Origin: a virus
IMG/VR virus record: IMGVR_UViG_3300021170_000008
Location: 42,135 to 106,134 of that record
DNA: 64,000 nucleotides
Reading direction: 5' to 3' (one strand)
The position numbers and the translations under genes were made by a program. Shown here in pieces: positions 9,960 to 59,937 of this stretch; the stretch's first letter is position 1; the number at the start of each line of letters is the position of its first letter. The notes under the pieces are model-generated. The model had not been told where the DNA came from. It was given only the letters and a program-made list of their open reading frames with translations, and did no database searches.

Positions 9960-9989
9960 TTGACAATAAGTATCCATCAATGCTAAACT
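9960..9989 (+). promoter_or_regulatory. Promoter of the AAA+ gene
   Basis: TTGACA at 9960-9965, 18-bp spacer starting ATAAGTATCC, TAAACT at 9984-9989. It excludes the ATG at 9980 as a start and gives a leader of about 40 nt. Confidence 0.75.
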
Positions 9990-10036
9990 TGAAGCTGTCC
10001 ACAATTTCCAAGATAGAAGGTTGGTACCTATACCAC

Positions 10037-21738: not shown

Positions 21739-22836
21739 TCATGGGGTGTTACTCGTCATCCCCTCGATTGTGGTAACTAGCGTAGAGATAGGCATGGGGG
21801 CAATCGTCAGCTTAATGTGTGAGTGCCCCGTGACGGAAGTCCCGGCATTCGTACCTGTGTAGTATTTGTAAGTCGAGCCGTTGACCTCAAGATGCCATCC
21901 GTCGGCCAGCCCGCCCCCGTCGGTTGTCAGTTCATCAGGACTTGCAGGATAAAAGGTTTGCCCGGTGAAATAGGTACTCCTGTCTGGGTTAAGAGTCCAC
22001 GGACCAGCCAGCGATGTAGCGGTCCAGCGTGCTATTCCCCAGTGTGCGACCACCTGGGCGGCCCACACCCAATAGTTGCTGCCGACCTTTGCAATCCACG
22101 GGCCGCTGCATCCCGGTCCGCTGATGATCAGATTACCGGAATTGACCTTGGTCCATGGGCCGGTCAGCGCCGTGGCTGTAGCCCCTCCACACTCAAAGTC
22201 CCCGCCGTTATTTCCTTCGTAGACCATCGTCCAGGTCCCGCCGTCATTGAACATGCTGGAGTTTTCAATCGCGTCCTGATCGAAGGCCCCACTCGATCCT
22301 TTTGTCAGGACGTTTGAGGCGGCTAGGGTCCACGTCAGCCCGTCGCTGTCGGGGCTTGTCAGCACGTCCATGTTATTTGTGCTAAAATTCTTGGCGAACT
22401 CGTAAAACGTCGAGCCGTTGTGAACGATGTTCCCTCGGTGGTAATTAGTGATAACCGGATTGCCCGAATACTTGGTCCAGCCCGTCATGCCATCCGCGCT
22501 TTCCGCGTATCCTATCCCGGTCGCTCCACTCCATCCATCGCCTGAATACCACATGGCAAAGCACGGGCTAGGGATAAGTTGACATCCGGTCGCTCGCTGA
22601 AGTACTCGCGGCTCCTCAATCGAAGTGTTTTCCCATGCCTGTGTTGCTGTTAGCACGGTTCCCTGCCGAACCCAAACTGGGGCAGGGGGATCAGTGGTAT
22701 TAATATACCGAGAAGCACGTGTTCCCGTTGATAAAAAGAGCAGTAGCAGCAGAAGTAGAGCCTTCGTATTGGAATACTCCTGCGGTCGTGATGTTGAACT
22801 CGTCCACGCCCCCCGCCGCGCCGGTTCGAGTGTCAT
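21739..22836 (-). CDS. Five-bladed beta-propeller, glycoside-hydrolase-like (GH43/GH32 fold)
   Basis: About 365 residues. Blade motifs such as M-W-Y-S-G-D-G-W-S-G-A-T-G-I-G-Y-A-E-S and G-P-W-T-K-V match family 43-type propellers. The start is uncertain. ATG 22836 overlaps the upstream gene by 137 bp, has no ribosome site, and puts a stretch of seven leucines about residue 25-32. That stretch is the other frame of the upstream gene's end and could act as a signal peptide. Probable glycan-binding or cutting tail protein. Confidence 0.6.
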   Translation of the reverse strand: MTLEPARRGAWTSSTSRPQEYSNTKALLLLLLLFLSTGTRASRYINTTDPPAPVWVRQGTVLTATQAWENTSIEEPRVLQRATGCQLIPSPCFAMWYSGDGWSGATGIGYAESADGMTGWTKYSGNPVITNYHRGNIVHNGSTFYEFAKNFSTNNMDVLTSPDSDGLTWTLAASNVLTKGSSGAFDQDAIENSSMFNDGGTWTMVYEGNNGGDFECGGATATALTGPWTKVNSGNLIISGPGCSGPWIAKVGSNYWVWAAQVVAHWGIARWTATSLAGPWTLNPDRSTYFTGQTFYPASPDELTTDGGGLADGWHLEVNGSTYKYYTGTNAGTSVTGHSHIKLTIAPMPISTLVTTIEGMTSNTP

Positions 22837-43015: not shown

Positions 43016-43789
43016 CTGCCCAACACATTTACAATCCACTGCGGCGATTGCCTGGACGTGATGCGAACGCTGCCATCAAAAAGTATTGATATTGTTTTTA
43101 CGAGTCCTCCATACAACCTGCAAACCCACATAACAAAAGGTAAGAACTACTGGTTAACTGTTGGCAAGATGAAAAAATCTAGGCTAGGCAAGGGGTATGC
43201 CGCCAGCAAAGATGACATGCCGTATGACGAGTATGTGCGCTGGCAGAAATCTGTACTGCTTGAATGCTGGAGATTATTAACCGATACCGGGGCTATATTC
43301 TACAATCACAAGCCGCGTATCCAGGATGGGCTTCTGTACACTCCGTTAGACCTTAATCCTGGATTGCCTGTACGGCAGATCCTGATCTGGAAACGCGCCG
43401 GTGGCATAAACTGCTCACCTACGTTCTTCATGTCAACACATGAGTGGATTGTGATATTCGCCAAGCCAGCGTTCCAGATACGCGACCGCTCGGCGTCTGG
43501 GATCGGGGATGTCTGGGAGATCCACCAGGGCAATCAGTCAAACCAGCCAAAGCACCCGGCTCCATTCCCTATGGAATTGCCGCTGCGGGCACTGACGGCG
43601 TTACGCAAGGAAGAGCGGGTAATCTTGGACCCGTTCATGGGCTCCGGAACTACCGGCGCAGCCTGCATGAAGACCAAGCGCGACTTCATCGGTATAGACA
43701 TCTCAAAAGAATACTGCGATATGGCCAGAAATAGAATATCCTTGGCGCAGCGTGGAGATTTCTATTCCTGGATGGAGTACGGAAACTAA
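43016..43789 (+). CDS. DNA methyltransferase (N6-adenine or N4-cytosine type)
   Basis: Motif IV is T-S-P-P-Y-N; motif I near the C-terminus is I-L-D-P-F-M-G-S-G-T-T followed by F-I-G-I-D-I-S. This order is the beta-type. The usual upstream H-C-G-D-C-L-D-V-M box is encoded at 43037-43063, before the first normal start (GTG 43058). Either a CTG at 43016, exactly at the expected transcription start, begins a leaderless message, or one base is missing near 43028 and the true start is ATG 43008. It protects phage DNA or marks it. Confidence 0.8.
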   Translation: MPNTFTIHCGDCLDVMRTLPSKSIDIVFTSPPYNLQTHITKGKNYWLTVGKMKKSRLGKGYAASKDDMPYDEYVRWQKSVLLECWRLLTDTGAIFYNHKPRIQDGLLYTPLDLNPGLPVRQILIWKRAGGINCSPTFFMSTHEWIVIFAKPAFQIRDRSASGIGDVWEIHQGNQSNQPKHPAPFPMELPLRALTALRKEERVILDPFMGSGTTGAACMKTKRDFIGIDISKEYCDMARNRISLAQRGDFYSWMEYGN

Positions 43790-46494: not shown

Positions 46495-46501
46495 TTCTAT
46501 T

Positions 46502-46510
46502 ATTGTCGGA
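46502..46510 (-). promoter_or_regulatory. TCCGACAAT motif, copy 6
   Basis: Minus-strand GTCCGACAATAATAG, 8 bp before the small terminase start. Confidence 0.45.
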
Positions 46511-46522
46511 CGGTGGGAGTAG

Positions 46523-46595
46523 TGCCGGTGGAGGGACTTGCACCCACACTTGGACGGCTTTTAAGGCCGTTTTCTCTGCGTTGGAATACACCGGC
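46523..46595 (-). tRNA. tRNA, anticodon UAA (Leu codon), short variable loop
   Basis: Acceptor GCCGGTG/CACCGGC; anticodon stem ACGGC/GCCGT with loop CTTAAAA. T-loop TGCAAGT is not canonical and one T-stem pair is lost. No CCA encoded. A Leu anticodon without the long variable arm is odd. Confidence 0.7.
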
Positions 46596-46601
46596 GAGAT
46601 G

Positions 46602-46693
46602 TGGTGGGCGACGAGGGAGTTGAACCCCCAGCGGGTCCGAAGGACCTCCAGTTCTACAGACTGGCGCGGGCTACCGATACCCGCAAGACGCCC
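46602..46693 (-). tRNA. tRNA-Tyr (GUA)
   Basis: Anticodon arm CCAGT CTGTAGA ACTGG; long variable arm; CCA encoded. One acceptor mismatch. Confidence 0.88.
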
Positions 46694-46694
46694 A

Positions 46695-46781
46695 TGGCGG
46701 AAGCGGCGTGACTCGAACACGCATGACCTATTCGGTCCCGATATTAGCAGTATCGTGGGATACCATTTACCCGACGCTTCC
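46695..46781 (-). tRNA. tRNA-Ser (GCU)
   Basis: Acceptor GGAAGCG/CGCTTCC; anticodon arm CGATA CTGCTAA TATCG; long variable arm; G73 and CCA encoded. Confidence 0.9.
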
Positions 46782-47249
46782 GTTTGAAATGGCAGGGCTG
46801 GCAAGGGTCGAACTCGCAATCGCTGTTTTGGAAGCAGCTACCGTCACCGTCCGGTCAGCCCTATAAATTCTACGCTTTCTGTTTGCCTCCGCACGGAAAA
46901 CCATACAGATATCACACTTGCATTTCCGCTTGAATGCAAAGGACCAGCCACCATGTGTTGCCTTCTGATTATCCCCATTTTCTCTTGTCTTTTCCAGATG
47001 GCACGGCTTGCATAATAACTGGCACTTCAAAAGCTCAGCCTCAAATAAATCCTTTCTCTTCTGCCACATCCTTCCGATGTCGCCAACCTTAGTGGCCGGA
47101 TCGATATGGTCAAAATCAAGATTCTTGGTAGCCCCACATCGGACGCATTTGCCTCCTAATTTAGCTAGCGCGTACTGCCTGCGGCGCTCCCTCCACTTCG
47201 GTAGATAATCCCGAAGATATTCCTGCATTTTCTTGCGAGTGTAGGCCAT
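46767..47249 (-). CDS. HNH homing endonuclease whose 3' end runs through tRNA-Trp
   Basis: From ATG 47249. HNH core C-V-R-C-G-A-T-K-N-L-D-F-D-H-I-D-P-A-T-K then C-Q-L-L-C-K-P-C-H, followed by a basic H-G-x-x-x-x-F-K-R-K-C-K-C-D-I-C segment. The last about 35 codons read through the whole tRNA-Trp and end in tRNA-Ser. The same build is seen in the 53242 gene. Confidence 0.85.
   Translation of the reverse strand: MAYTRKKMQEYLRDYLPKWRERRRQYALAKLGGKCVRCGATKNLDFDHIDPATKVGDIGRMWQKRKDLFEAELLKCQLLCKPCHLEKTRENGDNQKATHGGWSFAFKRKCKCDICMVFRAEANRKRRIYRADRTVTVAASKTAIASSTLASPAISNGSVG
46790..46862 (-). tRNA. tRNA-Trp (CCA)
   Basis: Acceptor AGGGCTG/CAGCCCT; loop TTCCAAA; G73 and CCA encoded. Covered by the end of the HNH gene. 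Confidence 0.85.
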
Positions 47250-47291
47250 GCGGAAGTTTATCACGCAGGCACTCACCGCGCAAATTAAAAG

Positions 47292-47385
47292 TGGAGGAGG
47301 ACCAGGGTCTCCAACCCTGACACCCGTTTAGGGTCTGCTGGGTTCGGGCCAGTGGCCGTTAGGGCGAATCTCGGCTTAGTCCTCC
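47292..47385 (-). tRNA. tRNA, anticodon CGA (Ser), long variable arm, atypical
   Basis: Acceptor GGAGGAC/GTCCTCC; variable arm ACCC-TAAA-CGGGT; CCA encoded. Position 33 is C, T-loop TTGGAGA and discriminator T are all unusual for Ser. Confidence 0.6.
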
Positions 47386-47386
47386 A

Positions 47387-47464
47387 TGGTACCCGCCCTC
47401 GGATTCGAACCGAGACTGTTCAGTTTCTAAAACTGAGGACTCCTGCCAGTTGGTCTAGGCGGGC
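47387..47464 (-). tRNA. tRNA, anticodon UAG (Leu codon), short variable loop
   Basis: Acceptor GCCCGCC/GGCGGGT; TCAGT TTTAGAA ACTGA; canonical T-arm; CCA encoded. Lacks the long arm usual for tRNA-Leu. Confidence 0.75.
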
Positions 47465-47483
47465 AAAATGAATGTCAAAGATC

Positions 47484-47557
47484 TGGAGAGCTAGCGCAGA
47501 GTCGAACTGCGTACGTCTCTTTTGCAGAGAGATCCCTGGCCGGTCGGGGTCTAGCTC
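47484..47557 (-). tRNA. tRNA-Cys (GCA)
   Basis: Acceptor GAGCTAG/CTAGCTC; TCTCT CTGCAAA AGAGA; U73 and CCA encoded. Confidence 0.9.
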
Positions 47558-47662
47558 AAACTGAGTTTTTGGGATTTAATAACTTGAGAGTTGCAGTCGG
47601 GATGACCACAAACAGGAACGCGACAGGAGGGATAAAATGTGTGCGCGGTTCATGTTTAGATA

Positions 47663-47878
47663 TTACTTCAATACTTGCGGCGCGTCAAGCATTTTCTTTC
47701 TCGTATAGTACTCCCTAGCCGAGAAGTCCATCCCTAAGGCACGCTTAATAACTTCCTCTAGGGGGCGTAACCCTTGATAGTGGTCTCGCACCGGGAACAA
47801 TATCTCCTTCCCGTCTACGCACCACATCCACTCGGCCTGCGGCAAATCATTCTTACGGATAACGACACGCGGCTTCAT
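47663..47878 (-). CDS. Small unrecognised protein
   Basis: 71 residues from ATG 47878, four bases after the upstream stop. M-K-P-R-V-V-I-R-K then E-W-M-W-C-V-D-G-K-E. No motif. Confidence 0.5.
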   Translation of the reverse strand: MKPRVVIRKNDLPQAEWMWCVDGKEILFPVRDHYQGLRPLEEVIKRALGMDFSAREYYTRKKMLDAPQVLK

Positions 47879-47882
47879 TCTA

Positions 47883-48122
47883 CTAGCCCGGCTCGTGGCC
47901 CGTCCCTTCGCAGCGTGGACAATCATACCTTCCATGCACGCACGCTAGGAACCCACTACCGGCGCAGCGCTGGCAGGCGATTGTCTGGATTGTGTTTTCG
48001 ATAGGCGGATCTGGGTACTTCGGGTCGCGATGGATCTTGGGAACGATCACCCGCGTCGTCTTGACCCGGCCTACCCGCTCACGGGCTATCCATTTGATTT
48101 CCTTGGGGACGTTGCGCTTCAT
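47883..48122 (-). CDS. DnaJ-like zinc-finger protein
   Basis: 79 residues with C-Q-R-C-A-G-S-G and C-P-R-C-E-G-T-G, the C-x-x-C-x-G-x-G repeats of DnaJ zinc centres. Start overlaps the upstream stop (ATGA). Confidence 0.6.
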   Translation of the reverse strand: MKRNVPKEIKWIARERVGRVKTTRVIVPKIHRDPKYPDPPIENTIQTIACQRCAGSGFLACVHGRYDCPRCEGTGHEPG

Positions 48123-48289
48123 TCTGAATCTCTATCGATCACCACGACCGTAACTCCCTCTTCTGACATCAGAATGAAATTACGCGCCTTCGTATCCGGA
48201 TCAAAGAACCGGTCTCGCTCCTGGGGGAATACGTGATGCAGTAGAGTTGCCCAGGCAGCATACGGCAGCCTTACGTGAATTTTAGCCAC
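48119..48289 (-). CDS. Small unrecognised protein
   Basis: 56 residues from GTG 48289, with GGAG seven bases upstream inside the end of the release-factor-like gene. Earlier in-frame start would overlap that gene by 110 bp and is rejected. Confidence 0.5.
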   Translation of the reverse strand: MAKIHVRLPYAAWATLLHHVFPQERDRFFDPDTKARNFILMSEEGVTVVVIDRDSE

Positions 48290-48710
48290 GCTCTTTCTCC
48301 AGCATCGCCTTGATGAACGGCTCAATACCGCCGTCGAGTACCGGTTCCAGCGGCAATTCAACGCCGGTGCGATGGTCAAGCACCGTGCCACGCTTGAAGT
48401 TGTACGTCCTGATCTTTTCGCCCTTCTCGGCGGTCTGGCGCGTTCTTTCTACCGGCACTCCAGCCATTCTTCTGGCGCATTCTATCCGGTGCCAGTCCTG
48501 GAACTCCTTTGATGCTACCAGACGCTTGAATGCAGCTTCCCGGTTCTTGGTATTGCTGCGGTGTTCACGGCCTTCGCCACGGGCTCCGGATGCTTTGTGG
48601 ATCAGACGTACGCCGCTGTTGGACGTGTCTTTACCTCCGCCTCCAGCCCCTCCTACCGAGAAGGTCTGAATCTAGAAGTCTTTCTTGGTGACACTAAAAA
48701 GCAGTTCCAT
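48282..48710 (-). CDS. Release-factor-like (GGQ-type) protein with in-frame amber codon
   Basis: ATG 48710 overlaps the upstream stop (TAATG). After twelve codons (M-E-L-L-F-S-V-T-K-K-D-F) comes TAG at 48672-48674. The frame then continues I-Q-T-F-S-V-G-G-A-G-G-G-G-K-D, S-N-S-G-V-R-L-I-H and so on to I-R-T-Y-N-F, V-L-D-H-R-T-G. These are class I release factor / peptidyl-tRNA hydrolase motifs, at ArfB-like length (about 142 codons). The GGQ glutamine is replaced by glycine. Amber read-through, mutation or sequence error are the options. Restart at ATG 48467 would lose the GG loop. Confidence 0.75.
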
Positions 48711-48919
48711 TACGCCCTCGCCGCCATTCTCTCCGCTCTCCTGGCTGCTGCCGCAGACGACCGGATCTGCCCTACGTGAAACCCGTTACAGAACGGACAC
48801 CGATACGCCCTGAACTTGGCCTTCTTGAGCTTATGTAAGCTCTTAGCCCGTATCTGGGCGTCCTCCAGGGTGTGGTGGATCTTCTTCCTGCCGCATTGTC
48901 TTTGCTGAAGGTCTGTCAT
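48710..48919 (-). CDS. Small zinc-finger-like protein
   Basis: 69 residues with C-G-R-K-K at the front and Y-R-C-P-F-C-N-G-F-H-V-G, a common small phage protein. Coupled to the release-factor-like gene. Confidence 0.55.
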   Translation of the reverse strand: MTDLQQRQCGRKKIHHTLEDAQIRAKSLHKLKKAKFRAYRCPFCNGFHVGQIRSSAAAARRAERMAARA

Positions 48920-48924
48920 AAATT

Positions 48925-49000
48925 TGGCTGGGAGTCTTGGGATCGAACCAAGGACCTTCTCTTTCAGAGAGAGACGCTCTGCCGACTGAGCTAACCCCCA
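48925..49000 (-). tRNA. tRNA-Gln (CUG)
   Basis: Acceptor TGGGGGT/ACTCCCA; TCTCT CTCTGAA AGAGA; G73; CCA encoded. Confidence 0.9.
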
Positions 49001-49227
49001 GTAAGACTATCTTTTTCTGTATCGAACGGCTCCATCGGTTCCGTGATCGACGTGTCTTCGCACTCTTCGTAGTTGCCTACCCGGCGCAGGTACTCCTTGC
49101 CTCCGTCCACGGAGATATTTCCGCACTTACAGGACCGGAAGTCATGTACCGACTTCGACTCGATCTCTTCCCCGCACTTCAAGCACTTGACGCTGTTGCG
49201 GATGATTTTCTCTCGCGGTATTTTCAT
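48991..49227 (-). CDS. Zinc-ribbon protein (DUF7695-like)
   Basis: 78 residues. V-K-C-L-K-C-G, E-S-K-S-V-H-D-F-R-S-C-K-C-G and V-D-G-G-K-E-Y-L-R-R match this family. The stop lies in the 5' end of tRNA-Gln. Confidence 0.65.
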   Translation of the reverse strand: MKIPREKIIRNSVKCLKCGEEIESKSVHDFRSCKCGNISVDGGKEYLRRVGNYEECEDTSITEPMEPFDTEKDSLTGG

Positions 49228-49616
49228 TTGTATTTACCTACCGCCAGCCGCAATTTAGCGTTTTCCGTACGTAGGGCCAGCAGTTCGTGCCAAGTAAACT
49301 CAGCGTTCATCTTATCAGAGATGAAAGATCCTTCCAGATACGCAATCCACGCCTTGTCCGATAGCTGCTTGTTTAACTTGCGAAGTCTTTTGGATTCCTT
49401 CAGCCAGTCTGATGCCCTCTTAAAAACTCTGTCTATATAACGCTGATCAACACTCTCCTGACGGGTATGGCAAATCCCCTGAGCCGCGTGCTTCCCTTTG
49501 AATTTACAGTCAGCCTGAACACAGAAGCTCTCCCAGATCTCGCGCTGGAACACGCGGGTCTCGGTCTTGTGCTTCCCGCCGTGCTTGATGATCTTGACTG
49601 GTTTTTCTTGTTTCAT
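49224..49616 (-). CDS. Unrecognised protein, 130 aa
   Basis: Basic N-terminus, then C-V-Q-A-D-C-K-F-K-G-K-H-A-A-Q-G-I-C-H, which could bind zinc, then helical. Stop overlaps the next start. Confidence 0.5.
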   Translation of the reverse strand: MKQEKPVKIIKHGGKHKTETRVFQREIWESFCVQADCKFKGKHAAQGICHTRQESVDQRYIDRVFKRASDWLKESKRLRKLNKQLSDKAWIAYLEGSFISDKMNAEFTWHELLALRTENAKLRLAVGKYK

Positions 49617-49621
49617 AAATT

Positions 49622-49649
49622 TGGTAGCGCCGGAGCGACTCGAACGCTC
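49622..49649 (-). pseudogene. tRNA 3'-half remnant
   Basis: T-arm GAGCG TTCGAGT CGCTC, 3' acceptor CGGCGCT, A73 and CCA are present, but no 5' half. Left behind next to tRNA-Phe. Confidence 0.7.
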
Positions 49650-49656
49650 ATAAAAT

Positions 49657-49733
49657 TGGTGGCTGGAATCGGTTTCGAACCGCCTTTCAGCGTTTTCAGC
49701 GCTGCTCTGTCACCAGACCAGATCCATCCAGCC
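49657..49733 (-). tRNA. tRNA-Phe (GAA)
   Basis: Acceptor GGCTGGA/TCCAGCC; CAGCG CTGAAAA CGCTG; CCA encoded. Weak T-stem. Overlapped by the end of the HNH gene. Confidence 0.8.
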
Positions 49734-50256
49734 CTTGCTTAACCAAACGAGAATATATAGCATCGACCGCCGTCAGCATATCCGCGTTAGTTATCACGTT
49801 ACCGTGCTCTATCCTATGACAGTTAGCGCACAACAATCGACACTTCTTTATCTCAGCCGCAATAGCACTCCACGATCTACTTGCCGAAGTCCCAACAGTA
49901 AAATCCTTGCCTCCGACATGATGGAAATCAAGAGCCGCTAGCGGGACCACGGAACTACACCTAGTACAGCTTCCTCCCATTATCTTAACGGCTGCCATTT
50001 TTGTAGCAGTGCGCCTGATCTTGGATATACATGCTCCGCAACGCCTTGACCTCCCACGACAGTCTTTCCCGCAGAAGCGGCATGACCCACTAATTTCTCT
50101 GCTCTTTCTGTCCTTCTTAGGGATGTGGATTCTTTTAGTATTATGAGATAGATACGGAGAGCAATCCAAGCAATACTTACGATCCCTGAACCATTTTCTC
50201 TTTCCATCAATCACCATAGTTGACGGGAAGATAGATTGACACTTACGGCACACCAT
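49696..50256 (-). CDS. HNH homing endonuclease ending inside tRNA-Phe
   Basis: 186 residues. Two zinc knuckles (C-R-K-C, C-R-F-C-G-K-D-C) precede the HNH core C-T-R-C-S-S-V-V-P-L-A-A-L-D-F-H-H and C-R-L-L-C-A-N-C-H. Stop TGA is in the tRNA-Phe anticodon arm. Confidence 0.85.
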   Translation of the reverse strand: MVCRKCQSIFPSTMVIDGKRKWFRDRKYCLDCSPYLSHNTKRIHIPKKDRKSREISGSCRFCGKDCRGRSRRCGACISKIRRTATKMAAVKIMGGSCTRCSSVVPLAALDFHHVGGKDFTVGTSASRSWSAIAAEIKKCRLLCANCHRIEHGNVITNADMLTAVDAIYSRLVKQGLDGSGLVTEQR

Positions 50257-50272
50257 GCACTATTGTATCACA

Positions 50273-50719
50273 TCATGCCTTGACCCCGTTGGCTACAGCG
50301 CTATTGTCAGTAACAATTCTTTCGAAGATCTTCAGCCCATCCGTCTGAGCATTGAACTTCATGTTCTTGCTGCCTGGGCTCGTTCCTGACCAGATCAAAA
50401 TTAACCCGCCGTCGCCTTTCGCCCACTCCGACATCTGCATATTCCGAATGATTCCGGCTTGTTTCCCGAACTTTTTCCAGTCGGCCTTCATGACCTCAGG
50501 CTTCACTTTAAGTTCGTACCGAAGCCACGCTTCAGCTACCTCGTCTACGCCTTTGGCCCCGCCGACGCAGAACTTGCTGTTCACCCAGCCATCAAGCTCG
50601 TCCAGGCCCTGTCTGATGTACTCGTAGATCAACTGGCGCTCGCCGATCACGTCGGACATGCGCTTGCCTTCTTTCTCGGCCCCGATCCAGCGCGACCCGG
50701 CGATAACTATACGCCGCAT
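50273..50719 (-). CDS. SLOG-family protein (DUF2493/YspA-like)
   Basis: 148 residues from ATG 50719. R-I-V-I-A-G-S-R and the later V-G-G-A-K-G-V-D-E-V-A-E-A-W, then W-x-x-x-G-K-Q-A-G-I-I-R-N-M-Q-M, are the nucleotide-sensing Rossmann-like SLOG pattern. It may bind or cut a nucleotide-derived signal. Confidence 0.75.
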   Translation of the reverse strand: MRRIVIAGSRWIGAEKEGKRMSDVIGERQLIYEYIRQGLDELDGWVNSKFCVGGAKGVDEVAEAWLRYELKVKPEVMKADWKKFGKQAGIIRNMQMSEWAKGDGGLILIWSGTSPGSKNMKFNAQTDGLKIFERIVTDNSAVANGVKA

Positions 50720-51270
50720 AGCCTGCGCCAAAGCAAAACAGCAAGACCGGTCAGTACAAGAGCCGCAGACCCAGGCTCCGGAACATCCGTAACATAGTAC
50801 GGAAATAATCTGATCCAACCTCCGCCGTCGCATTCCGAACAAGACCCGGAAACAGATCCAGCTATCGTAAACTGCTCTCCAGAATAGAACTCATACTCGG
50901 GCATACCGTGCGGTCCAATGCCGACATTGGGTAGACTGACACTGAATCCAGACCGTCCCCATATTGCCGTGGCATCTTGCGCTGCGTATAGCTCAATCAT
51001 CCCAGGCAATCCAGAAGTCGTCACGATGTCCATCTCAATTGAGAACGACGCTGACCCCGAAGCCTCCGTACATTGATCGAAAGCATTACACCAAGACGAC
51101 AGTAAGACTGTAGCTACCGGCAGGTTCGAAAACGGATCAACTTCAGCGTAAGCGCTGGCGGTAGCGCCTGATCCTGACGCCTGCTGAGACGTGTTAAACA
51201 CAGCAGGGCCAAGTGAAACCGTATCGGCCAACAGCGGCAACGAAAGCGCCAGTAGCAGCATGGCCTTCAT
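50707..51270 (-). CDS. PEP-CTERM surface protein
   Basis: 187 residues. Signal peptide A-M-L-L-L-A-L-S-L-P-L-L-A is followed by a beta-rich, Ser/Gly-rich domain. The end is V-P-E-P-G-S-A-A-L-V-L-T-G-L-A-V-L-L-W, then two arginines, a textbook PEP-CTERM sorting tail. It needs a host exosortase. A strong promoter places transcription start on the ATG. Likely a surface-altering moron. Confidence 0.85.
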   Translation of the reverse strand: MKAMLLLALSLPLLADTVSLGPAVFNTSQQASGSGATASAYAEVDPFSNLPVATVLLSSWCNAFDQCTEASGSASFSIEMDIVTTSGLPGMIELYAAQDATAIWGRSGFSVSLPNVGIGPHGMPEYEFYSGEQFTIAGSVSGSCSECDGGGWIRLFPYYVTDVPEPGSAALVLTGLAVLLWRRLCGV

Positions 51271-51276
51271 ATCTTT

Positions 51277-51305
51277 ATTATCGCTCTACGCAAAGTATCT
51301 GTCAA
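51277..51305 (-). promoter_or_regulatory. Promoter of the PEP-CTERM gene
   Basis: Minus-strand TTGACA (51305-51300), 17-bp spacer GATACTTTGCG..., GATAAT (51282-51277), six bases, then ATG 51270. Confidence 0.8.
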
Positions 51306-51380
51306 GACTAATCAGGCCGTCCGCCGGGCTTCCCGCTAGGTTAGGGCTGGGTAAGCAACAACGTGACGGCCTGAACTTGT

Positions 51381-51456
51381 TGGCGTCCCTGCGGAGAATT
51401 GAACTCCGATTGTCGGCTTGAGAAACCGATTTCCTTGCCGTTTAGAAGACAGGGAC
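51381..51456 (-). tRNA. tRNA-Glu (CUC)
   Basis: Acceptor GTCCCTG/CAGGGAC; TCGGT TTCTCAA GCCGA; G73; CCA encoded. Confidence 0.88.
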
Positions 51457-51457
51457 G

Positions 51458-51532
51458 TGGCGGGCGCGAGCAGAATCGAACTGCCGTCGAGGCATAGACA
51501 GTGCCCCATCTTGGCCACTAGAAGACGCGCCC
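51458..51532 (-). tRNA. tRNA-Asp (GUC)
   Basis: Acceptor GGGCGCG/CGCGCCC; loop CTGTCTA; G73; CCA encoded. Confidence 0.9.
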
Positions 51533-51538
51533 TAAACT

Positions 51539-51613
51539 TGGTGCTCGGCTCCGGACTTGAACCGGAATTGTCAGATTCGTAATCTGAAGACCTATCCATT
51601 GATCGAACCGAGC
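51539..51613 (-). tRNA. tRNA-Arg (ACG)
   Basis: Acceptor GCTCGGT/GCCGAGC; TCAGA TTACGAA TCTGA; CCA encoded. Confidence 0.9.
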
Positions 51614-51614
51614 A

Positions 51615-51688
51615 TGGTACCGCCAGCGAGAATCGGACTCGCGTTGCAGGAGTGAAAATCCTGATTCCTACCACTAGAAGATGGCGGC
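51615..51688 (-). tRNA. tRNA-Glu (UUC)
   Basis: Acceptor GCCGCCA/TGGCGGT; CAGGA TTTTCAC TCCTG; CCA encoded. Confidence 0.9.
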
Positions 51689-51698
51689 ATAAATCTAA

Positions 51699-51772
51699 TG
51701 AGCCCGGAGAGAATCGAACTCTCGATGTACGGATTAAAAATCCGTTGCTCGGCCAACGTGAGCGACGGGCTC
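51699..51772 (-). tRNA. tRNA-Lys (UUU)
   Basis: Acceptor GAGCCCG/CGGGCTC; ACGGA TTTTTAA TCCGT; no CCA encoded. Confidence 0.9.
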
Positions 51773-51779
51773 GCAAAAC

Positions 51780-51857
51780 TGGTGGACCGCCTCGGACTCG
51801 AACCGAGAATCGCCGGAGTAAGAATCCGGAGCTTTAATCCAATTTAGCTAACGGTCC
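51780..51857 (-). tRNA. tRNA-Lys (CUU)
   Basis: Acceptor GGACCGT/GCGGTCC; CCGGA TTCTTAC TCCGG; CCA encoded. Confidence 0.9.
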
Positions 51858-51863
51858 AAACTT

Positions 51864-51942
51864 TGGTGCCTCTTCTTGGATTCGAACCAAGGGCCTACCG
51901 ATTATGAGCCGGTTGCTCTGGGCCAGACTGAGCTAAAGAGGC
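51864..51942 (-). tRNA. tRNA-Met (CAU), elongator type
   Basis: Paired acceptor GCCTCTT/AAGAGGC; ACCGG CTCATAA TCGGT; CCA encoded. Could be Ile2 if C34 is modified. Confidence 0.85.
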
Positions 51943-51946
51943 AAAA

Positions 51947-52021
51947 TGGTTGGGAGTGACAGACTCGAACTGTCGTAGTAAGATTCAAAATCTTACGTCC
52001 TAGCCGCTGAACGAACTCCCA
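51947..52021 (-). tRNA. tRNA-Gln (UUG)
   Basis: Acceptor TGGGAGT/ACTCCCA; TAAGA TTTTGAA TCTTA; CCA encoded. Confidence 0.9.
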
Positions 52022-52028
52022 TCAAAAT

Positions 52029-52105
52029 TGGTGCGCCTGGGAGGAATCGAACCCCCGTAGTCTCCGGTAGAAACGGAGCGCATAAATCCGCTCTGCCACA
52101 GGCGC
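52029..52105 (-). tRNA. tRNA-Arg (UCU)
   Basis: Acceptor GCGCCTG/CAGGCGC; CTCCG TTTCTAC CGGAG; CCA encoded. Confidence 0.9.
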
Positions 52106-52109
52106 TTAA

Positions 52110-52202
52110 TGGCCACCGACTGGGCGACTCACACCCTCGACTCTCGCCGGGGTAACTTGCGGCATACGATCCGCATGGCGACGATCCCAGCATCTAGTGG
52201 CC
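52110..52202 (-). tRNA. Atypical long-arm tRNA or tRNA-like element
   Basis: Acceptor GGCCACT/GGTGGCC is sound. The anticodon arm TGCGG/CCGCA has an 8-base loop ATCGTATG, and there is no TTC-type T-loop. Identity unclear (CGU if one base is bulged). Confidence 0.45.
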
Positions 52203-52206
52203 AACT

Positions 52207-52280
52207 TGGTCCCTTCGGAACGAGTCGCACGTTCGTCGGTCGGTTATCAGCCGACTGCATTGCTCTTATGCTACGAAGGG
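52207..52280 (-). tRNA. tRNA-Ile (GAU)
   Basis: Acceptor CCCTTCG/CGAAGGG; GTCGG CTGATAA CCGAC; T-loop TGCGACT atypical; CCA encoded. Confidence 0.85.
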
Positions 52281-52285
52281 GAAAT

Positions 52286-52361
52286 TGGTACCGGTATCCA
52301 GACTCGAACTGGAATTCCTGCCTTCGGAGGACAGTGCCCTGATCCCTTGGACGATACCGGC
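52286..52361 (-). tRNA. tRNA-Arg (CCG)
   Basis: Acceptor GCCGGTA/TACCGGT; CTGTC CTCCGAA GGCAG; CCA encoded. Confidence 0.9.
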
Positions 52362-52368
52362 GAAACTT

Positions 52369-52440
52369 TTAGGCGTCGAGATTTGAACTCGAATTTGCCC
52401 CTTAGGAGGGGGCCGTCGTATCCGGGTTGGACCACGCCCA
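52369..52440 (-). tRNA. tRNA-Arg (CCU)
   Basis: Acceptor TGGGCGT/ACGCCTA; GCCCC CTCCTAA GGGGC; no CCA encoded. Confidence 0.85.
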
Positions 52441-52443
52441 ACT

Positions 52444-52519
52444 TGGTACCGGGGTAGAGGATCGAACTCTACTGCAACTGTGTGTAGGACAGTGGCCCTC
52501 TCCAGAAGGCGACCCCGGC
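52444..52519 (-). tRNA. tRNA-Val (UAC)
   Basis: Acceptor GCCGGGG/CCCCGGT; ACTGT CCTACAC ACAGT (C33 instead of U33); CCA encoded. Confidence 0.8.
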
Positions 52520-52526
52520 ATTGAAA

Positions 52527-52616
52527 TGGCTCACGGGGCAGGATTCGAACCTGCGGCGGGGACTGAGTCCCTCCTGATTAACAGTCAGGCTCCTGCTACC
52601 ACTCGGATACCCGTGA
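52527..52616 (-). tRNA. tRNA with Asn anticodon (GUU) on a class II (long-arm) body
   Basis: Acceptor TCACGGG/CCCGTGA; CCTGA CTGTTAA TCAGG; variable arm GGGAC-TCA-GTCCC; Ser/Leu-like D-arm; G73; CCA encoded. Confidence 0.85.
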
Positions 52617-52623
52617 ATAAAAT

Positions 52624-52698
52624 TGGTCGGGGTAGGTGTTCTCGACTCACCGGCCTCAGCTTCCCAAAAGCCGCGCTCTGCCTCTGAGCTATACCCCG
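52624..52698 (-). tRNA. tRNA-Pro (UGG)
   Basis: Acceptor CGGGGTA/TACCCCG; CGGCT TTTGGGA AGCTG; CCA encoded. Confidence 0.88.
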
Positions 52699-52702
52699 AA
52701 AT

Positions 52703-52777
52703 TGGTTGCGGAGGGGAGAATCGAACTCCCGATCCCGTGCGCCCGAGGCACGTACCATACCACTTGGCTACTCCGCA
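52703..52777 (-). tRNA. tRNA-Pro (CGG)
   Basis: Acceptor TGCGGAG/CTCCGCA; CGTGC CTCGGGC GCACG; CCA encoded. Confidence 0.88.
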
Positions 52778-52787
52778 AAAACTTGAT

Positions 52788-52847
52788 GCCGGGGTGCCGG
52801 ATTTTCACCGACCGCCCATGGTTGAAACCGCGTGCTCCGACCCCGGC
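52788..52847 (-). other. 60-nt mini tRNA-like element
   Basis: Eight-bp acceptor GCCGGGGT/ACCCCGGC and a T-arm-like GTCGG TGAAAAT CCGGC, but only 27 nt between them instead of about 41. There is room for a single further arm (GGTT-TC-AACC). Remnant or D-armless molecule. Confidence 0.5.
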
Positions 52848-52898
52848 GCATTGGACTGCATTCTATTGTCAAACAACTCAGCCCAACCAACTAATGAG

Positions 52899-53009
52899 CT
52901 ATGTGTACTTCTTAACCCAGCGGCACACGCCGCAGATGATGCAGCGTAACTTCTCTACGTTCTCCGTCACCTTGCCGCATCGCTTGCAGAAGATCGCTTC
53001 TTGATCCAT
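52899..53009 (-). CDS. 36-residue zinc-ribbon micro-protein
   Basis: ATG 53009. F-C-K-R-C-G-K then L-R-C-I-I-C-G-V-C gives two C-x-x-C knuckles in 36 residues. No clear ribosome site. It lies between tRNA genes. Confidence 0.55.
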   Translation of the reverse strand: MDQEAIFCKRCGKVTENVEKLRCIICGVCRWVKKYT

Positions 53010-53015
53010 AACTTT

Positions 53016-53091
53016 TGGGAGGCTATGTCAGGATCGAACTGACGTAAACGGTTCCACAGACCGTCCCCTGAACCACTCGGGTAATAGCCCC
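53016..53091 (-). tRNA. tRNA-His (GUG)
   Basis: Acceptor GGGCTAT/ATAGCCT plus the His-specific G-1:C73 pair; ACGGT CTGTGGA ACCGT; CCA encoded. Confidence 0.92.
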
Positions 53092-53102
53092 GCATTCAAA
53101 CT

Positions 53103-53182
53103 TGGTGGAGCACTGGAGTAACGATCTCCACTGAAATTCCGCATTGCAAGTGCGGCGACCACCCCATGCAGTCCCGTGCCCC
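53103..53182 (-). tRNA. tRNA-Ala (UGC)
   Basis: Acceptor GGGGCAC/GTGCTCC; CCGCA CTTGCAA TGCGG; T-loop ATCGTTA atypical; CCA encoded. Confidence 0.82.
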
Positions 53183-53187
53183 AAAAC

Positions 53188-53265
53188 TGGAGCGAGTGGA
53201 GCGATTTGAACGCTCGGCCTGTTCGTTGGCAACGAACCGCTCTAGCCAGACTGAGCTACACCCGC
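53188..53265 (-). tRNA. tRNA-Gly (GCC)
   Basis: Acceptor GCGGGTG/CACTCGC; GTTCG TTGCCAA CGAAC; U73; CCA encoded. Its 5' half is overlapped by an HNH gene end. Confidence 0.9.
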
Positions 53266-53658
53266 CGAATACATTCCCGGTATACGCTTAGGATTTCTCT
53301 CCCGCTGCGCCTTCAATCTCTGCCGTTGATGTTCTCTACACAATTCGCACCGGCAGCCACGCCTATACGATGCGTGCGTTCCGTGTACAGCATCCCTACG
53401 AAATTCCTCCGCCGTCTTTTTCTCATGGCACTTCCTGCACAGGACCTGACACTTCTTTAATTCCTCAGTCCTAGTACTTTCCTTCCATGACCAGATCCTG
53501 TGCGACACTTTCGTCTTTGGGTCGATGTGGTCAACTTCAAGCCTTTCCCATGACCCACACCGCCTGCACGGCCCGTTTGCGGAAAGCCATTCATTCCGAC
53601 GTTTCCGAATCCATTTGAGCCTATATTCTTTTTGCTCCACCGGATCAATGTAAGGCAT
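53242..53658 (-). CDS. HNH homing endonuclease ending inside tRNA-Gly
   Basis: 138 residues: C-R-R-C-G-S-W-E-R-L-E-V-D-H-I-D-P-K-T-K, C-Q-V-L-C-R-K-C-H, then R-R-G-C-R-C-E-L-C-R. Same architecture as the 46767 gene. The stop TAG is the T-A-G of the tRNA D-loop. Confidence 0.87.
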   Translation of the reverse strand: MPYIDPVEQKEYRLKWIRKRRNEWLSANGPCRRCGSWERLEVDHIDPKTKVSHRIWSWKESTRTEELKKCQVLCRKCHEKKTAEEFRRDAVHGTHASYRRGCRCELCREHQRQRLKAQRERNPKRIPGMYSAGVAQSG

Positions 53659-53701
53659 GGAGCGATGTTACAGGACAAACCCGACAGAGTCAATCTCAAA
53701 A

Positions 53702-53775
53702 TGGAGCGGATGGCGAGAATCGGACTCGCGTCTTGAGTTTGGAAGACTCAGGCCCTACCACTGGACGACATCCGC
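53702..53775 (-). tRNA. tRNA-Gly (UCC)
   Basis: Acceptor GCGGATG/CATCCGC; TGAGT CTTCCAA ACTCA; U73; CCA encoded. Confidence 0.9.
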
Positions 53776-53781
53776 CCTAAC

Positions 53782-53958
53782 TTAGTCTGCTCCGCTTGCG
53801 CCGGTCGCATCCGATACCGACGCCAGCATCATCGCTTCAACAGCGTCAGCAAAATCGTCTTGCTCGTCGGGCGACAACTCGCCGTTCCGGATCATACACT
53901 GATGGCATCCTTCCCGATACCGGTAATGCGCCGCACACGGCAATCTGTTTTGTTCCAT
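53782..53958 (-). CDS. 58-residue protein with Cys/His cluster
   Basis: ATG 53958 with GGGAG six bases upstream. Front L-P-C-A-A-H-Y-R-Y-R-E-G-C-H-Q-C (possible zinc site), then an acidic helix. Not recognised. Confidence 0.6.
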   Translation of the reverse strand: MEQNRLPCAAHYRYREGCHQCMIRNGELSPDEQDDFADAVEAMMLASVSDATGASGAD

Positions 53959-53984
53959 AACTAACTCCCTGGTTTTACTATAAC

Positions 53985-54059
53985 TGGAGCCCCGCCGGGA
54001 GCTTGAATCCCGCTAGCTGCCTTACCAAAGCAGTTCATCGCCATCTATGATTGCAGGGC
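53985..54059 (-). tRNA. tRNA-Thr (GGU)
   Basis: Acceptor GCCCTGC/GCGGGGC; CTGCT TTGGTAA GGCAG; CCA encoded. Confidence 0.85.
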
Positions 54060-54065
54060 CTAAAC

Positions 54066-54140
54066 TGGAGCACCATCGCGGAGTTGAACCGCGCTGTCTG
54101 GTATACGAAGCCAGGGCATCGCCAGCAATGCTTATGGTGC
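54066..54140 (-). tRNA. tRNA-Thr (CGU)
   Basis: Acceptor GCACCAT/ATGGTGC; loop TTCGTAT; CCA encoded. One anticodon-stem mismatch. Confidence 0.82.
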
Positions 54141-54247
54141 CTAATTCTGATTGTTCCCGGTGTGACGCCGCTTGGGCTTGGGAAGTTATGCCAAGCGGCT
54201 GAATTGGTCCCGGCGCGTTTCAATCGCCATGACTCTACCGGCTGGAT

Positions 54248-54328
54248 TGGTTGCGGGAATCGGATTTGAACCGATATGATTCCGGCTTATGAGACCGGCG
54301 CTGGGGCCAGATTCCAGTCCATCCCGCT
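54248..54328 (-). tRNA. Initiator tRNA-fMet (CAU)
   Basis: Unpaired first acceptor position (A1:A72), then GCGGGA/TCCCGC; CCGGT CTCATAA GCCGG with G-C pairs below the loop; end CCCGCAACCA. These are initiator features. Confidence 0.8.
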
Positions 54329-54337
54329 TCAAATGTT

Positions 54338-54408
54338 TGGGGCTAGCTGACAGAATTGAACTGTCCCTGAAACCATACAAGGGGTTCGGCGCGGCCACGC
54401 GAGCTAGC
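54338..54408 (-). tRNA. tRNA, probable Thr (UGU)
   Basis: Perfect acceptor GCTAGCT/AGCTAGC and T-arm GACAG TTCAATT CTGTC. The anticodon arm is imperfect (8-base loop or one mismatch with loop CTTGTAT). C73; CCA encoded. Confidence 0.65.
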
Positions 54409-54458
54409 ACGCATGTCGAACCGATCATCCCTGATGTGTTCAAAAGCTCCACGGTCTA

Positions 54459-54486
54459 ATCTTACCACTCCCAGGTATCTTGTCAA
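54459..54486 (-). promoter_or_regulatory. Promoter of the tRNA cluster
   Basis: Minus-strand TTGACA (54486-54481), 16-bp spacer starting AGATACCTGG, TAAGAT (54464-54459). The first tRNA begins about 50 bp further. The rest of the 54409-54592 gap holds an AGGTA...TACCT inverted repeat and no gene. Confidence 0.7.
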
Positions 54487-54592
54487 GCACTATTTTAAGG
54501 GCGGTGTTTCATGTAGGTATAACCAGTACCTTGTCATGCGGCTCTCCCGCAGCACCATGCCGCCCTTCCCCGTGCGTCCACTACGGAGAACT

Positions 54593-55075
54593 TTATACTA
54601 CTGTAATTCCACCCGGACCCGGCTGCTCGGTCGGCAGCGGCGGTAATCCGGATTCGGCCTGCGGCTGGATCTCAATCCCGCTTAGAACCGCATTCCCAAC
54701 CGTTGCCGTAAACTGCATCGATAGATTCCCGTTTGTAACAATCGCCGGTACCGTCAGCGTATACGGGACCATCAGTCCAGCCAGCGCAAACAAATCAATA
54801 ACTTGCGTCAGTAGTCCATTAACCATGATGGTGAATCTTCGCTGACCTGGACCGGTCTTGTTTGGCTCTAAAAATAACAAGTTTACGATATAAAAGCCGT
54901 TCGAAGTCACATACGACGCTGTGAATGCCGGGCCATAGCGCAGCGTCTGATAGACGCCAGATTGATTCCCCATATTTGGATCGTTAGCCGGTCCCCACAA
55001 CGTCCCGCTACAACCGAAGTCTGCGACATAATTCCCTACCGCAGGCCCACCGATGTTCACCAGCAGCGGGTCCAA
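54593..55075 (-). CDS. Malectin-like carbohydrate-binding protein
   Basis: 160 residues: V-N-I-G-G, V-Y-Q-T-L-R-Y-G, G-F-Y-I-V-N-L-L-F-L-E-P, R-R-F-T-I-M-V-N-G, and L-S-G-I-E-I-Q-P are the malectin domain strands. Probably binds host sugars. Confidence 0.75.
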   Translation of the reverse strand: MDPLLVNIGGPAVGNYVADFGCSGTLWGPANDPNMGNQSGVYQTLRYGPAFTASYVTSNGFYIVNLLFLEPNKTGPGQRRFTIMVNGLLTQVIDLFALAGLMVPYTLTVPAIVTNGNLSMQFTATVGNAVLSGIEIQPQAESGLPPLPTEQPGPGGITVV

Positions 55076-55609
55076 CTACGATCTCCCGAGAGCACTACCA
55101 ACCCAGCATCCACCAACCGGCACTGTTATTTCCTGTGGTAGCTCTAACGCACGTAGACGCGCCGCTGGTGCCGTCGGCGTCGCCGGAGCTAGTTTGGTAG
55201 CAAGCCAGTGCGCGAGCAGTCCAGCGCCTGCAGAAACCGTCACCGCCATGGTTTTCTCACTAGGAGGCATCTTCACGCTGCCGGTTATAAATGCTCCAGC
55301 TAGGCTAGCTAGCTCGGCGGTATCTGCGCTGATCTCTGCTAGGGATTTCCGTACCGTCAAAAGATCAATCGACCCAGGCGAAAACAGGGACTGATTGTTG
55401 AGTGCGGCAGCCTGGATTACTTCACTTGACGACACGCGAGTCCCTACTGAGGCGCACACTCGGACATCTTTTACAACGACACCAGGGATGCCGCGATCTA
55501 AAAATGTCCGACGCGCCGTGCGTGGTCCGTTAGAGACCGTGACAGTAACCTGAGCCAATGCCGGAATTGTCAATGCCCCGAATAGCGCGAAGATGAAACG
55601 GCAGATCAC
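55076..55609 (-). CDS. Exported protein, 177 aa
   Basis: Signal peptide F-I-F-A-L-F-G-A-L-T-I-P-A-L-A-Q, then a beta-like part and an Ala-rich helix. Not recognised. Start overlaps the lipoprotein stop. Confidence 0.55.
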   Translation of the reverse strand: MICRFIFALFGALTIPALAQVTVTVSNGPRTARRTFLDRGIPGVVVKDVRVCASVGTRVSSSEVIQAAALNNQSLFSPGSIDLLTVRKSLAEISADTAELASLAGAFITGSVKMPPSEKTMAVTVSAGAGLLAHWLATKLAPATPTAPAARLRALELPQEITVPVGGCWVGSALGRS

Positions 55610-56115
55610 TTCTTGGGTGCTGGCTGAGAGACTTTCGGCAATGCCTTTATGGCGACGACAGTCTGCTGAGCCTTTGTGCGTAGCATCTCAAACTTGGCTA
55701 CATCGGCGTTGCTGAGCTTCGCCGCTCTGGCGGCTGGGACTGCACCGACTACCGGAGCGGGATTAGCAGCTAAATAGTTCACAACATCCTGAGCTATAAG
55801 CGCCACGATGTTGGCCACGGCCTGCGGAATTCCAGGCGGCAGCGTCGGAGCGATTTGTTTTGCGAGACATCCAGCGATAGTCGCCAGTTGCGTTGGGTTA
55901 GGCGCACCAGACACACTCCCGATGCAGTCCGCCACAGCCGCTATGTAGGCGGGAACTTGCGGCGGGATAGGGACGCCTGCTGCCTGAAGTATTGGGACTG
56001 CGGCGGCAGTTGAGTCCACAACGGCTTGGAGAACATTGAGGGTACCGCACGAGGCCAGCGCCATCGCCAGCGAGATCGTGAGTAGGACCGCAATCGGAGC
56101 CCGTGCTTTGATCAT
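55606..56115 (-). CDS. Lipoprotein
   Basis: 169 residues. Lipobox L-A-S-C-G after a hydrophobic signal. The mature part is Ala/Pro-rich helices with a hydrophobic stretch I-V-A-L-I-A-Q. Possible superinfection-exclusion or o-spanin-like protein. Confidence 0.65.
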   Translation of the reverse strand: MIKARAPIAVLLTISLAMALASCGTLNVLQAVVDSTAAAVPILQAAGVPIPPQVPAYIAAVADCIGSVSGAPNPTQLATIAGCLAKQIAPTLPPGIPQAVANIVALIAQDVVNYLAANPAPVVGAVPAARAAKLSNADVAKFEMLRTKAQQTVVAIKALPKVSQPAPKK

Positions 56116-56432
56116 AATGTCACCGGATGCGTGCTCGAATACCAGTCTTGATATGCTTGCGGTGTGTTCATCGGCAACTGCTTAAGTAGAATGATGCCGT
56201 ACCACGCCTTAAATGCGTCGATGGTCTGCTGAATAACGGATGCCGCTGCCGAGCTACCTGGGAAAGCAATCCCAAAAGCTACGGCCTCCTGCGTCAGATT
56301 AGCAGCAAACTGATCTGGCGTAGGCGGGAGAATGCGGTCGCTTCCGACCTGAAACCCCTGCGTCCACTGCAAAAGCTGGTCCGCCATCATATCGGCGAAA
56401 CTAGCGTAAAACGTGCTTGGCGTTGTTGCCAT
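56112..56432 (-). CDS. Small helical protein
   Basis: 106 residues (F-A-D-M-M-A-D-Q-L-L-Q-W), aromatic and Ala-rich, no signal. Not recognised. Confidence 0.5.
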   Translation of the reverse strand: MATTPSTFYASFADMMADQLLQWTQGFQVGSDRILPPTPDQFAANLTQEAVAFGIAFPGSSAAASVIQQTIDAFKAWYGIILLKQLPMNTPQAYQDWYSSTHPVTL

Positions 56433-56435
56433 TTA

Positions 56436-59640: not shown

Positions 59641-59937
59641 TCAAGAGCCAGGAGGCTTAGTTGAGATTGCGTTTGCCTCGTCGAGCGCGGCCTTAGTCTG
59701 AGCTTGCAGGTCATCGAGCGCCTTTTGATCCTCTGGCGTGATAGCCGAGCCAGTACCCGACATCCCTAAGAATGCAGATATCGATTCCAGTTGAGTCTGA
59801 ATTGAGTCCTGGCCCTTTTGGGCGAGGGTTTGATTGCTGATGATCTCATCTAGTTTTTTAACTATGTCCTTGTTGCCGCCATGATTTTCCACGGCATCAA
59901 TGAACACATCAGAAATAGTATTGAAGATACTAGGCAT
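59641..59937 (-). CDS. Small coiled-coil protein
   Basis: 98 residues from ATG 59937 (CAGGAGG six bases upstream; ATG overlaps the intein gene end). Contains A-I-T-P-E-D-Q-K-A-L-D-D-L-Q-A-Q-T, as in the 59281 protein. Confidence 0.6.
   Translation of the reverse strand: MPSIFNTISDVFIDAVENHGGNKDIVKKLDEIISNQTLAQKGQDSIQTQLESISAFLGMSGTGSAITPEDQKALDDLQAQTKAALDEANAISTKPPGS

What the first reader, a model, noticed from the sequence alone, without database searches (positions are those of the whole stretch)
50707..51305. PEP-CTERM protein in a phage genome
Signal peptide, Ser/Gly-rich beta domain and the tail V-P-E-P-G-S plus hydrophobic helix plus R-R are a complete exosortase substrate, driven by one of the best promoters in the window. 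A phage using the host exosortase to change the cell surface or biofilm matrix would be new to me. It also limits the host to exosortase-bearing bacteria.
Basis: partly seen in the sequence, partly recalled or inferred. Interest (0 to 1): 0.82.

Follow-up and report, generated by a model that had tools for sequence, protein, structure and literature searches.

The report
Phage-encoded exosortase substrate (PEP-CTERM protein)
A complete phage genome carries a gene for a secreted protein whose tail is the address label that many bacteria use to put proteins on their outer surface, and similar labels turn out to sit in many environmental phages, so phages may commonly repaint their host's surface by borrowing the host's own sorting enzyme.

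Summary
Window 50707-51270, minus strand, encodes a 187-aa protein with a Sec-type leader, a lysine-free Ser/Gly-rich domain (predicted all-beta) and a C-terminal PEP-CTERM tail (TIGR02595 19.7 bits, cut-off 16; 25.0 bits against 9.8 for the best of 60 shuffled genomes with a model from viral tails). Its promoter-like site (11/12) is joint best in the 106-kb genome. Contamination is unlikely: the record is a terminally redundant tailed-phage genome, the gene overlaps the next phage gene and its codon usage is phage-like. The gene lies in a 9.9-kb accessory island, with 27 tRNAs, that two relatives lack at this site. Two related 96-99 kb phages carry other, unrelated PEP-CTERM proteins at other loci. 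None of 51 records tested encodes an exosortase. I found no paper on phage PEP-CTERM function. Most likely: a moron displayed on the host surface by the host's exosortase, probably for surface exclusion of other phages. The function and the host are inferred.

The parts
51277..51305 (-). sigma-70-like promoter TTGACA-17-GATAAT; -10 ends 6 nt before the ATG, implying a leaderless or near-leaderless mRNA
   Evidence: 11/12, joint best of the 106-kb genome
50707..51270 (-). PEP-CTERM protein gene g098, 187 aa
   Evidence: ORF; TIGR02595 19.7 bits > 16; 25.0 bits vs 9.8 in shuffles
51226..51270 (-). predicted Sec signal peptide, residues 1-15 (MKAMLLLALSLPLLA|DT), cleavage site by inspection
   Evidence: sequence; hydropathy; no SignalP available
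50785..51225 (-). exported domain, residues 16-162: Ser/Gly-rich, lysine-free, acidic, four cysteines, predicted beta strands
50710..50784 (-). PEP-CTERM tail, residues 163-187: VPEPGS, hydrophobic helix, RR
50273..50719 (-). g097, YspA/cpYpsA-related SLOG-family protein (PHROG 'GTP-binding domain'); start overlaps the end of g098 by 13 bp, likely translationally coupled
   Evidence: Pfam YAcAr 27.3 bits, just under cut-off 28.2
46495..56435 (-). accessory island between the homologues of g092 and g103; holds 27 tRNAs, HNH genes, g097-g098 and g099-g102; missing from this site in relatives L163 and G268
46522..54408 (-). array of 27 tRNA genes; g098 lies just downstream of tRNA-Glu(ctc) at 51381-51456

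Best explanation
g098 is a phage-carried accessory (moron) gene for an exosortase substrate. Host RNA polymerase is expected to transcribe it from its own strong promoter. The protein is expected to cross the inner membrane by Sec, sit there by its PEP-CTERM helix, and be cut and sorted by the HOST exosortase onto the cell surface or the exopolysaccharide, because the phage encodes none. Displayed there, the small acidic domain most likely alters or masks the surface so that competing phages adsorb or inject less well (surface exclusion), as phage lipoproteins do by another anchoring route. Shown here: the architecture, the phage location, the lack of a phage exosortase, the accessory status and the recurrence in relatives. 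Inferred: sorting by the host, surface display and exclusion.
For: Complete substrate architecture beyond chance. The phage record is terminally redundant, 249 bp with one mismatch, and has TerL, portal and major head genes. No exosortase PF09721 in the phage or in 50 PEP-CTERM-bearing viral records; the control genome rang. The gene is accessory: relative L163 (MCP 81%, portal 69%, TerL 61%) has the flanking genes 167 bp apart, where this phage has 9.9 kb; relative G268 likewise lacks the island. Two relatives carry one PEP-CTERM protein each, without detectable similarity to g098, in their early/replication arm: with this phage, 3 of the 8 clade records of 75 kb or more, and these are the 3 with the most similar head protein. 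Independent recruitment of the tail on different domains points to selection for surface display itself. Widespread in IMG/VR, with families A (29 loci) and B (21 loci), several next to or overlapping portal and terminase genes. Its own promoter, apart from the structural genes, suits a moron.
Against: No experiment; the host, hence its exosortase, is unknown. No homologue of the exported domain was found, so nothing but the leader and tail points to function. In families A and B the gene often sits in the head operon, which suggests late expression and fits exclusion less well than an early gene would. The Pfam model is just under its cut-off. The basic end is short (RR only).
Confidence: 0.45

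Rival explanations
1. The protein is sorted by the host exosortase but serves the matrix: it changes exopolysaccharide attachment, aggregation or biofilm, helping progeny spread or protecting the infected cell.
For: Known PEP-CTERM proteins act in floc formation, adhesion to polysaccharide and biofilm (PMC12188702; PMC9012009, abstract). A malectin-domain protein, a carbohydrate-binding fold, lies in the same island.
Against: A small domain with no enzyme signature and no homologue; the benefit during a lytic cycle is unclear; no matrix gene nearby.
Confidence: 0.2
2. A passenger gene: a host surface-protein gene caught by the phage, perhaps with the tRNA island, of little or no benefit to it.
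For: The gene is in a variable tRNA/HNH island absent from relatives; the exported domain is an orphan.
Against: Relatives carry unrelated PEP-CTERM proteins at other loci; intact frame, strong promoter and phage-like codon usage; families A and B recur across many viral contigs.
Confidence: 0.15
3. A decoy or inhibitor of the host exosortase: abundant phage substrate occupies the enzyme and strips the host's own PEP-CTERM proteins from the surface, exposing receptors or loosening the matrix.
For: Different exported domains share only the tail, as expected if the tail itself is the active part; strong promoter.
Against: A full exported domain would be unnecessary for a decoy; family A conserves its domain.
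Confidence: 0.1
4. Not an exosortase substrate in practice: a secreted protein anchored in the inner membrane by a C-terminal helix, for example acting in the periplasm at lysis or against incoming DNA.
For: PF07589 below cut-off; only two arginines after the helix; host exosortase unproven.
Against: TIGR02595 above cut-off; VPEPGS at the exact place; 25.0 bits vs 9.8 in shuffles.
Confidence: 0.1

Closest known systems
PEP-CTERM/exosortase (EpsH) sorting system of bacteria (Haft et al. 2006, PMC1569441)
   Same: N-terminal signal peptide, orphan Ser/Gly-rich domain, PEP motif, hydrophobic helix, basic end
   Different: encoded by a phage, one copy, no exosortase in the same genome; the host enzyme must be borrowed
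Phage Ltp-type superinfection-exclusion lipoproteins (TP-J34, PMC3952083)
   Same: small phage moron displayed on the host surface; scattered distribution
   Different: Ltp is a lipoprotein of phages of Gram-positive bacteria with shown exclusion; here the route is a C-terminal exosortase signal and the function is inferred
TIGR03118 exosortase-linked proteins listed among virus-held cellular genes of hot-spring viromes (PMC11003980)
   Same: exosortase-interaction C-terminus on viral contigs
   Different: only listed there as gene transfers; no genome context or function; a different protein family
Tunturiibacter phages Tunturi_1 and Tunturi_2 (PP887698.1, PP885685.1)
   Same: distant TerL (22%), portal (25%), major head and RusA homologues; TerL, portal and head in the same order
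   Different: 63 kb; annotated without a PEP-CTERM product

Membership tests
PEP-CTERM exosortase substrate | PEP motif followed by a hydrophobic helix and basic residues at the extreme C-terminus | tested here: met
   TIGR02595 19.7 bits over cut-off 16; PF07589 18.6, under 20.7; helix 166-185
PEP-CTERM exosortase substrate | N-terminal Sec signal peptide | tested here: met
   hydropathy and inspection; no SignalP available
PEP-CTERM exosortase substrate | no transmembrane segment between leader and tail | tested here: met
   maximum mean hydropathy 1.36 over 15 residues between the two segments
PEP-CTERM exosortase substrate | cognate exosortase in the cell | tested here: inconclusive
   none in the phage; host unknown
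PEP-CTERM exosortase substrate | cleavage of the tail and surface or EPS location | not testable with these tools
   needs expression in an exosortase host
Genuine phage gene (not contamination) | embedded in a phage genome with phage-like codon usage, related phages carrying comparable genes | tested here: met
   read coverage not available
Superinfection-exclusion moron | accessory gene with own promoter, absent from relatives | tested here: met
Superinfection-exclusion moron | blocks adsorption or injection of other phages | not testable with these tools
   bench test needed; so it is not filed as a member

The most novel reading that the evidence does not exclude
Exosortase-dependent surface display is a widespread, unrecognised phage strategy: many environmental tailed-phage lineages have independently put PEP-CTERM tails on unrelated secreted domains, sometimes inside the head-gene operon, to remodel the host surface through the host's exosortase.
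Probability: 0.4. Interest if true: 0.82.

Novelty: new variant of a known kind. Interest (0 to 1): 0.66.

Why it matters
Phage morons that repaint the host surface are known with lipoprotein or membrane anchors; use of the exosortase route is not described in the papers I could search. If true, phages of exosortase-bearing bacteria, many of them uncultured soil and freshwater groups, manipulate the surface or matrix during infection, and the PEP-CTERM tail becomes a marker of host type and of surface-active phage genes. It also gives compact, selected test proteins for the open question of what PEP-CTERM proteins do.

Tried and rejected
Homologues of the exported domain: none in IMG/VR, INPHARED, PHROGs, GTDB contigs by peptide pattern, plasmids (only insignificant hits), 199 genomes of one unnamed bacterial phylum or 24 relatives. 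PDB by sequence and by fold gave nothing; the single-sequence model is too weak. Family A folds better (pLDDT 77) but matches nothing in PDB or BFVD. A consensus-tail tblastn in INPHARED gave no match, but that query is low-complexity and probably masked, so it proves nothing; one full-length member each of families A and B also gave none there. A tail pattern close to g098 hit 33 bacterial loci and no other viral one, and no named acidobacterium was among them, so host assignment failed. I also considered that the ORF is not a gene because its hexamer score is low; rejected, since synonymous codon usage is normal for the phage and the low score reflects its unusual amino-acid make-up.

Full report
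What is there. Window 50707-51270 on the minus strand is an open frame of 187 codons. It begins MKAMLLLALSLPLLADTV, a typical Sec leader, and ends VPEPGSAALVLTGLAVLLWRRLCGV. NCBIfam's PEP-CTERM domain model accepts it (19.7 bits, cut-off 16); Pfam's model falls just short (18.6, cut-off 20.7). A model I built from viral PEP-CTERM tails gives it 25.0 bits, while the best ORF in 60 dinucleotide-shuffled copies of the genome gives 9.8. The domain between is Ser/Gly-rich, has no lysine, 2 basic and 14 acidic residues, four cysteines and no further hydrophobic segment, and is predicted as beta strands plus a C-terminal helix at low confidence. These are the features Haft and colleagues used to define PEP-CTERM proteins (PMC1569441).

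Promoter. TTGACA-17-GATAAT ends 6 nt before the ATG. It matches 11 of 12 consensus positions; there are two such sites in 106 kb and 0.75 are expected by shuffling, so a site placed exactly there is unlikely to be chance. A transcript would be leaderless or nearly so. The gene's end overlaps the start of g097, a SLOG-family gene, by 13 bp, so the two probably form an operon.

Is it phage? The window is part of a 106,134-bp virus record whose first and last 249 bp are the same but for one base, so the genome is essentially complete. It has TerL, portal, major head protein and structural genes. TerL, portal, head and RusA proteins have distant homologues in a phage of the acidobacterium Tunturiibacter, with TerL, portal and head in the same order. 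Synonymous codon usage of the gene is at about the 25th percentile of the phage's own genes. Contamination is therefore unlikely, though reads were not available.

Relatives. A TerL alignment and then a head-protein alignment found a clade of phages, several of 75-103 kb. L163, the closest that covers this site, keeps the order of genes but has the neighbours g103 and g092 167 bp apart, where this phage has 9.9 kb with 27 tRNAs, HNH genes, g097-g098 and g099-g102. Relative G268 also lacks the island. So g098 is accessory. Yet G268 (96 kb) and G275 (99 kb) each carry one PEP-CTERM protein over the cut-off; these show no detectable similarity to g098 and lie in the early/replication arm. The G275 protein is the weakest of the three and its leader is judged from an internal start. 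Among the 8 clade records of 75 kb or more, including this one, 3 have a PEP-CTERM gene, and these are the three with the most similar head protein (65% or more); the other five (53-56%) have none. This looks like repeated recruitment, perhaps tied to host group. The numbers are small.

How common is it? A degenerate DNA pattern for the tail hit its 120-locus limit in IMG/VR; 117 of 124 ORFs pass a hydrophobic-leader test and have the tail at their end. The leader test was crude and a few of these ORFs are short fragments in which it is not meaningful. Two families recur, A in 29 loci and B in 21. Several sit in head-gene operons: in L063 the gene starts 4 bp inside the portal gene, after TerL and head protein; in L017 and L054 a large gene, a portal gene in L017, follows 2 bp later, and in L023 the portal gene ends 20 bp before. 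A scan of 44 neighbour proteins shows portal and terminase families most often. Some of the other loci may be host flanks of proviruses, so 117 is not a count of phages. None of 50 such records, nor this phage, encodes an exosortase, while the control genome rang; many of the 50 are fragments. INPHARED has no relatives of the tested members of A and B or of g098.

Literature. Searches for PEP-CTERM or exosortase with phage, bacteriophage or virus found no study of phage PEP-CTERM proteins. One hot-spring virome paper lists 13 TIGR03118 exosortase-linked proteins among virus-held cellular genes (PMC11003980). Most subscription journals were not searchable.

How it most likely works. In bacteria the exosortase is thought to remove the tail and the protein goes to the surface or polysaccharide; the exosortase of Nostoc punctiforme is needed for adhesion to polysaccharide and biofilm (PMC12188702). 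The phage supplies the substrate and must borrow the enzyme. A small surface protein from an accessory gene with its own promoter resembles phage exclusion lipoproteins such as Ltp (PMC3952083). I therefore favour surface exclusion, at moderate confidence, above matrix remodelling, passenger gene, exosortase decoy and simple membrane anchor. What is shown is the architecture, location, accessory status, recurrence and lack of a phage exosortase. Host, processing, display and exclusion are inferred.

Verdict. It is a new variant of a known kind: a surface moron by a new sorting route.

Noticed in passing
window 8008-9633 (+): Ro60/TROVE protein with vWA domain (Pfam 224 and 167 bits), next to a AAA+ ATPase at 9980-11569: an RNA-binding module in a phage.
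   Followed up: partly
window 59930-61807 (-); L163 9998-13321: Intein (72 bits) in a protein near the structural genes; the TerL of the relative L163 is 1107 aa and carries an insertion with similarity to the same intein.
   Followed up: partly
L001 93-3932 and 3933-6062 (-); window 22700-24766 (-): Long fibre-like proteins that begin with Sec-type signal peptides, unusual for virion proteins.
   Followed up: no
window 46522-54408 (-): 27 tRNA genes interleaved with HNH endonuclease genes in an island that relatives lack at this site.
   Followed up: partly
window 54593-55075 (-): Malectin-domain (carbohydrate-binding) protein in the same island, next to genes for a secreted protein and a lipoprotein-like protein.
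   Followed up: no
L226 910-1482 (-): In relative G268 a radical SAM gene lies directly downstream of the PEP-CTERM gene.
   Followed up: no
L063 4392-6937 (+): The PEP-CTERM gene sits between a portal gene and an ORF matching the far C-terminal end of the same portal profile (phrog_2271 positions 804-857), as if inserted into a portal gene.
   Followed up: no
window 43061-43789 (+): DNA methyltransferase gene (N6_N4_Mtase) on the opposite strand, between the terminase large subunit gene and the portal region.
   Followed up: no
L064, L088, L097: Small viral-contig family (108-139 aa) with an N-terminal basic stretch (RRxLPPGxxRR) before the hydrophobic segment and a PEP-CTERM tail.
   Followed up: no
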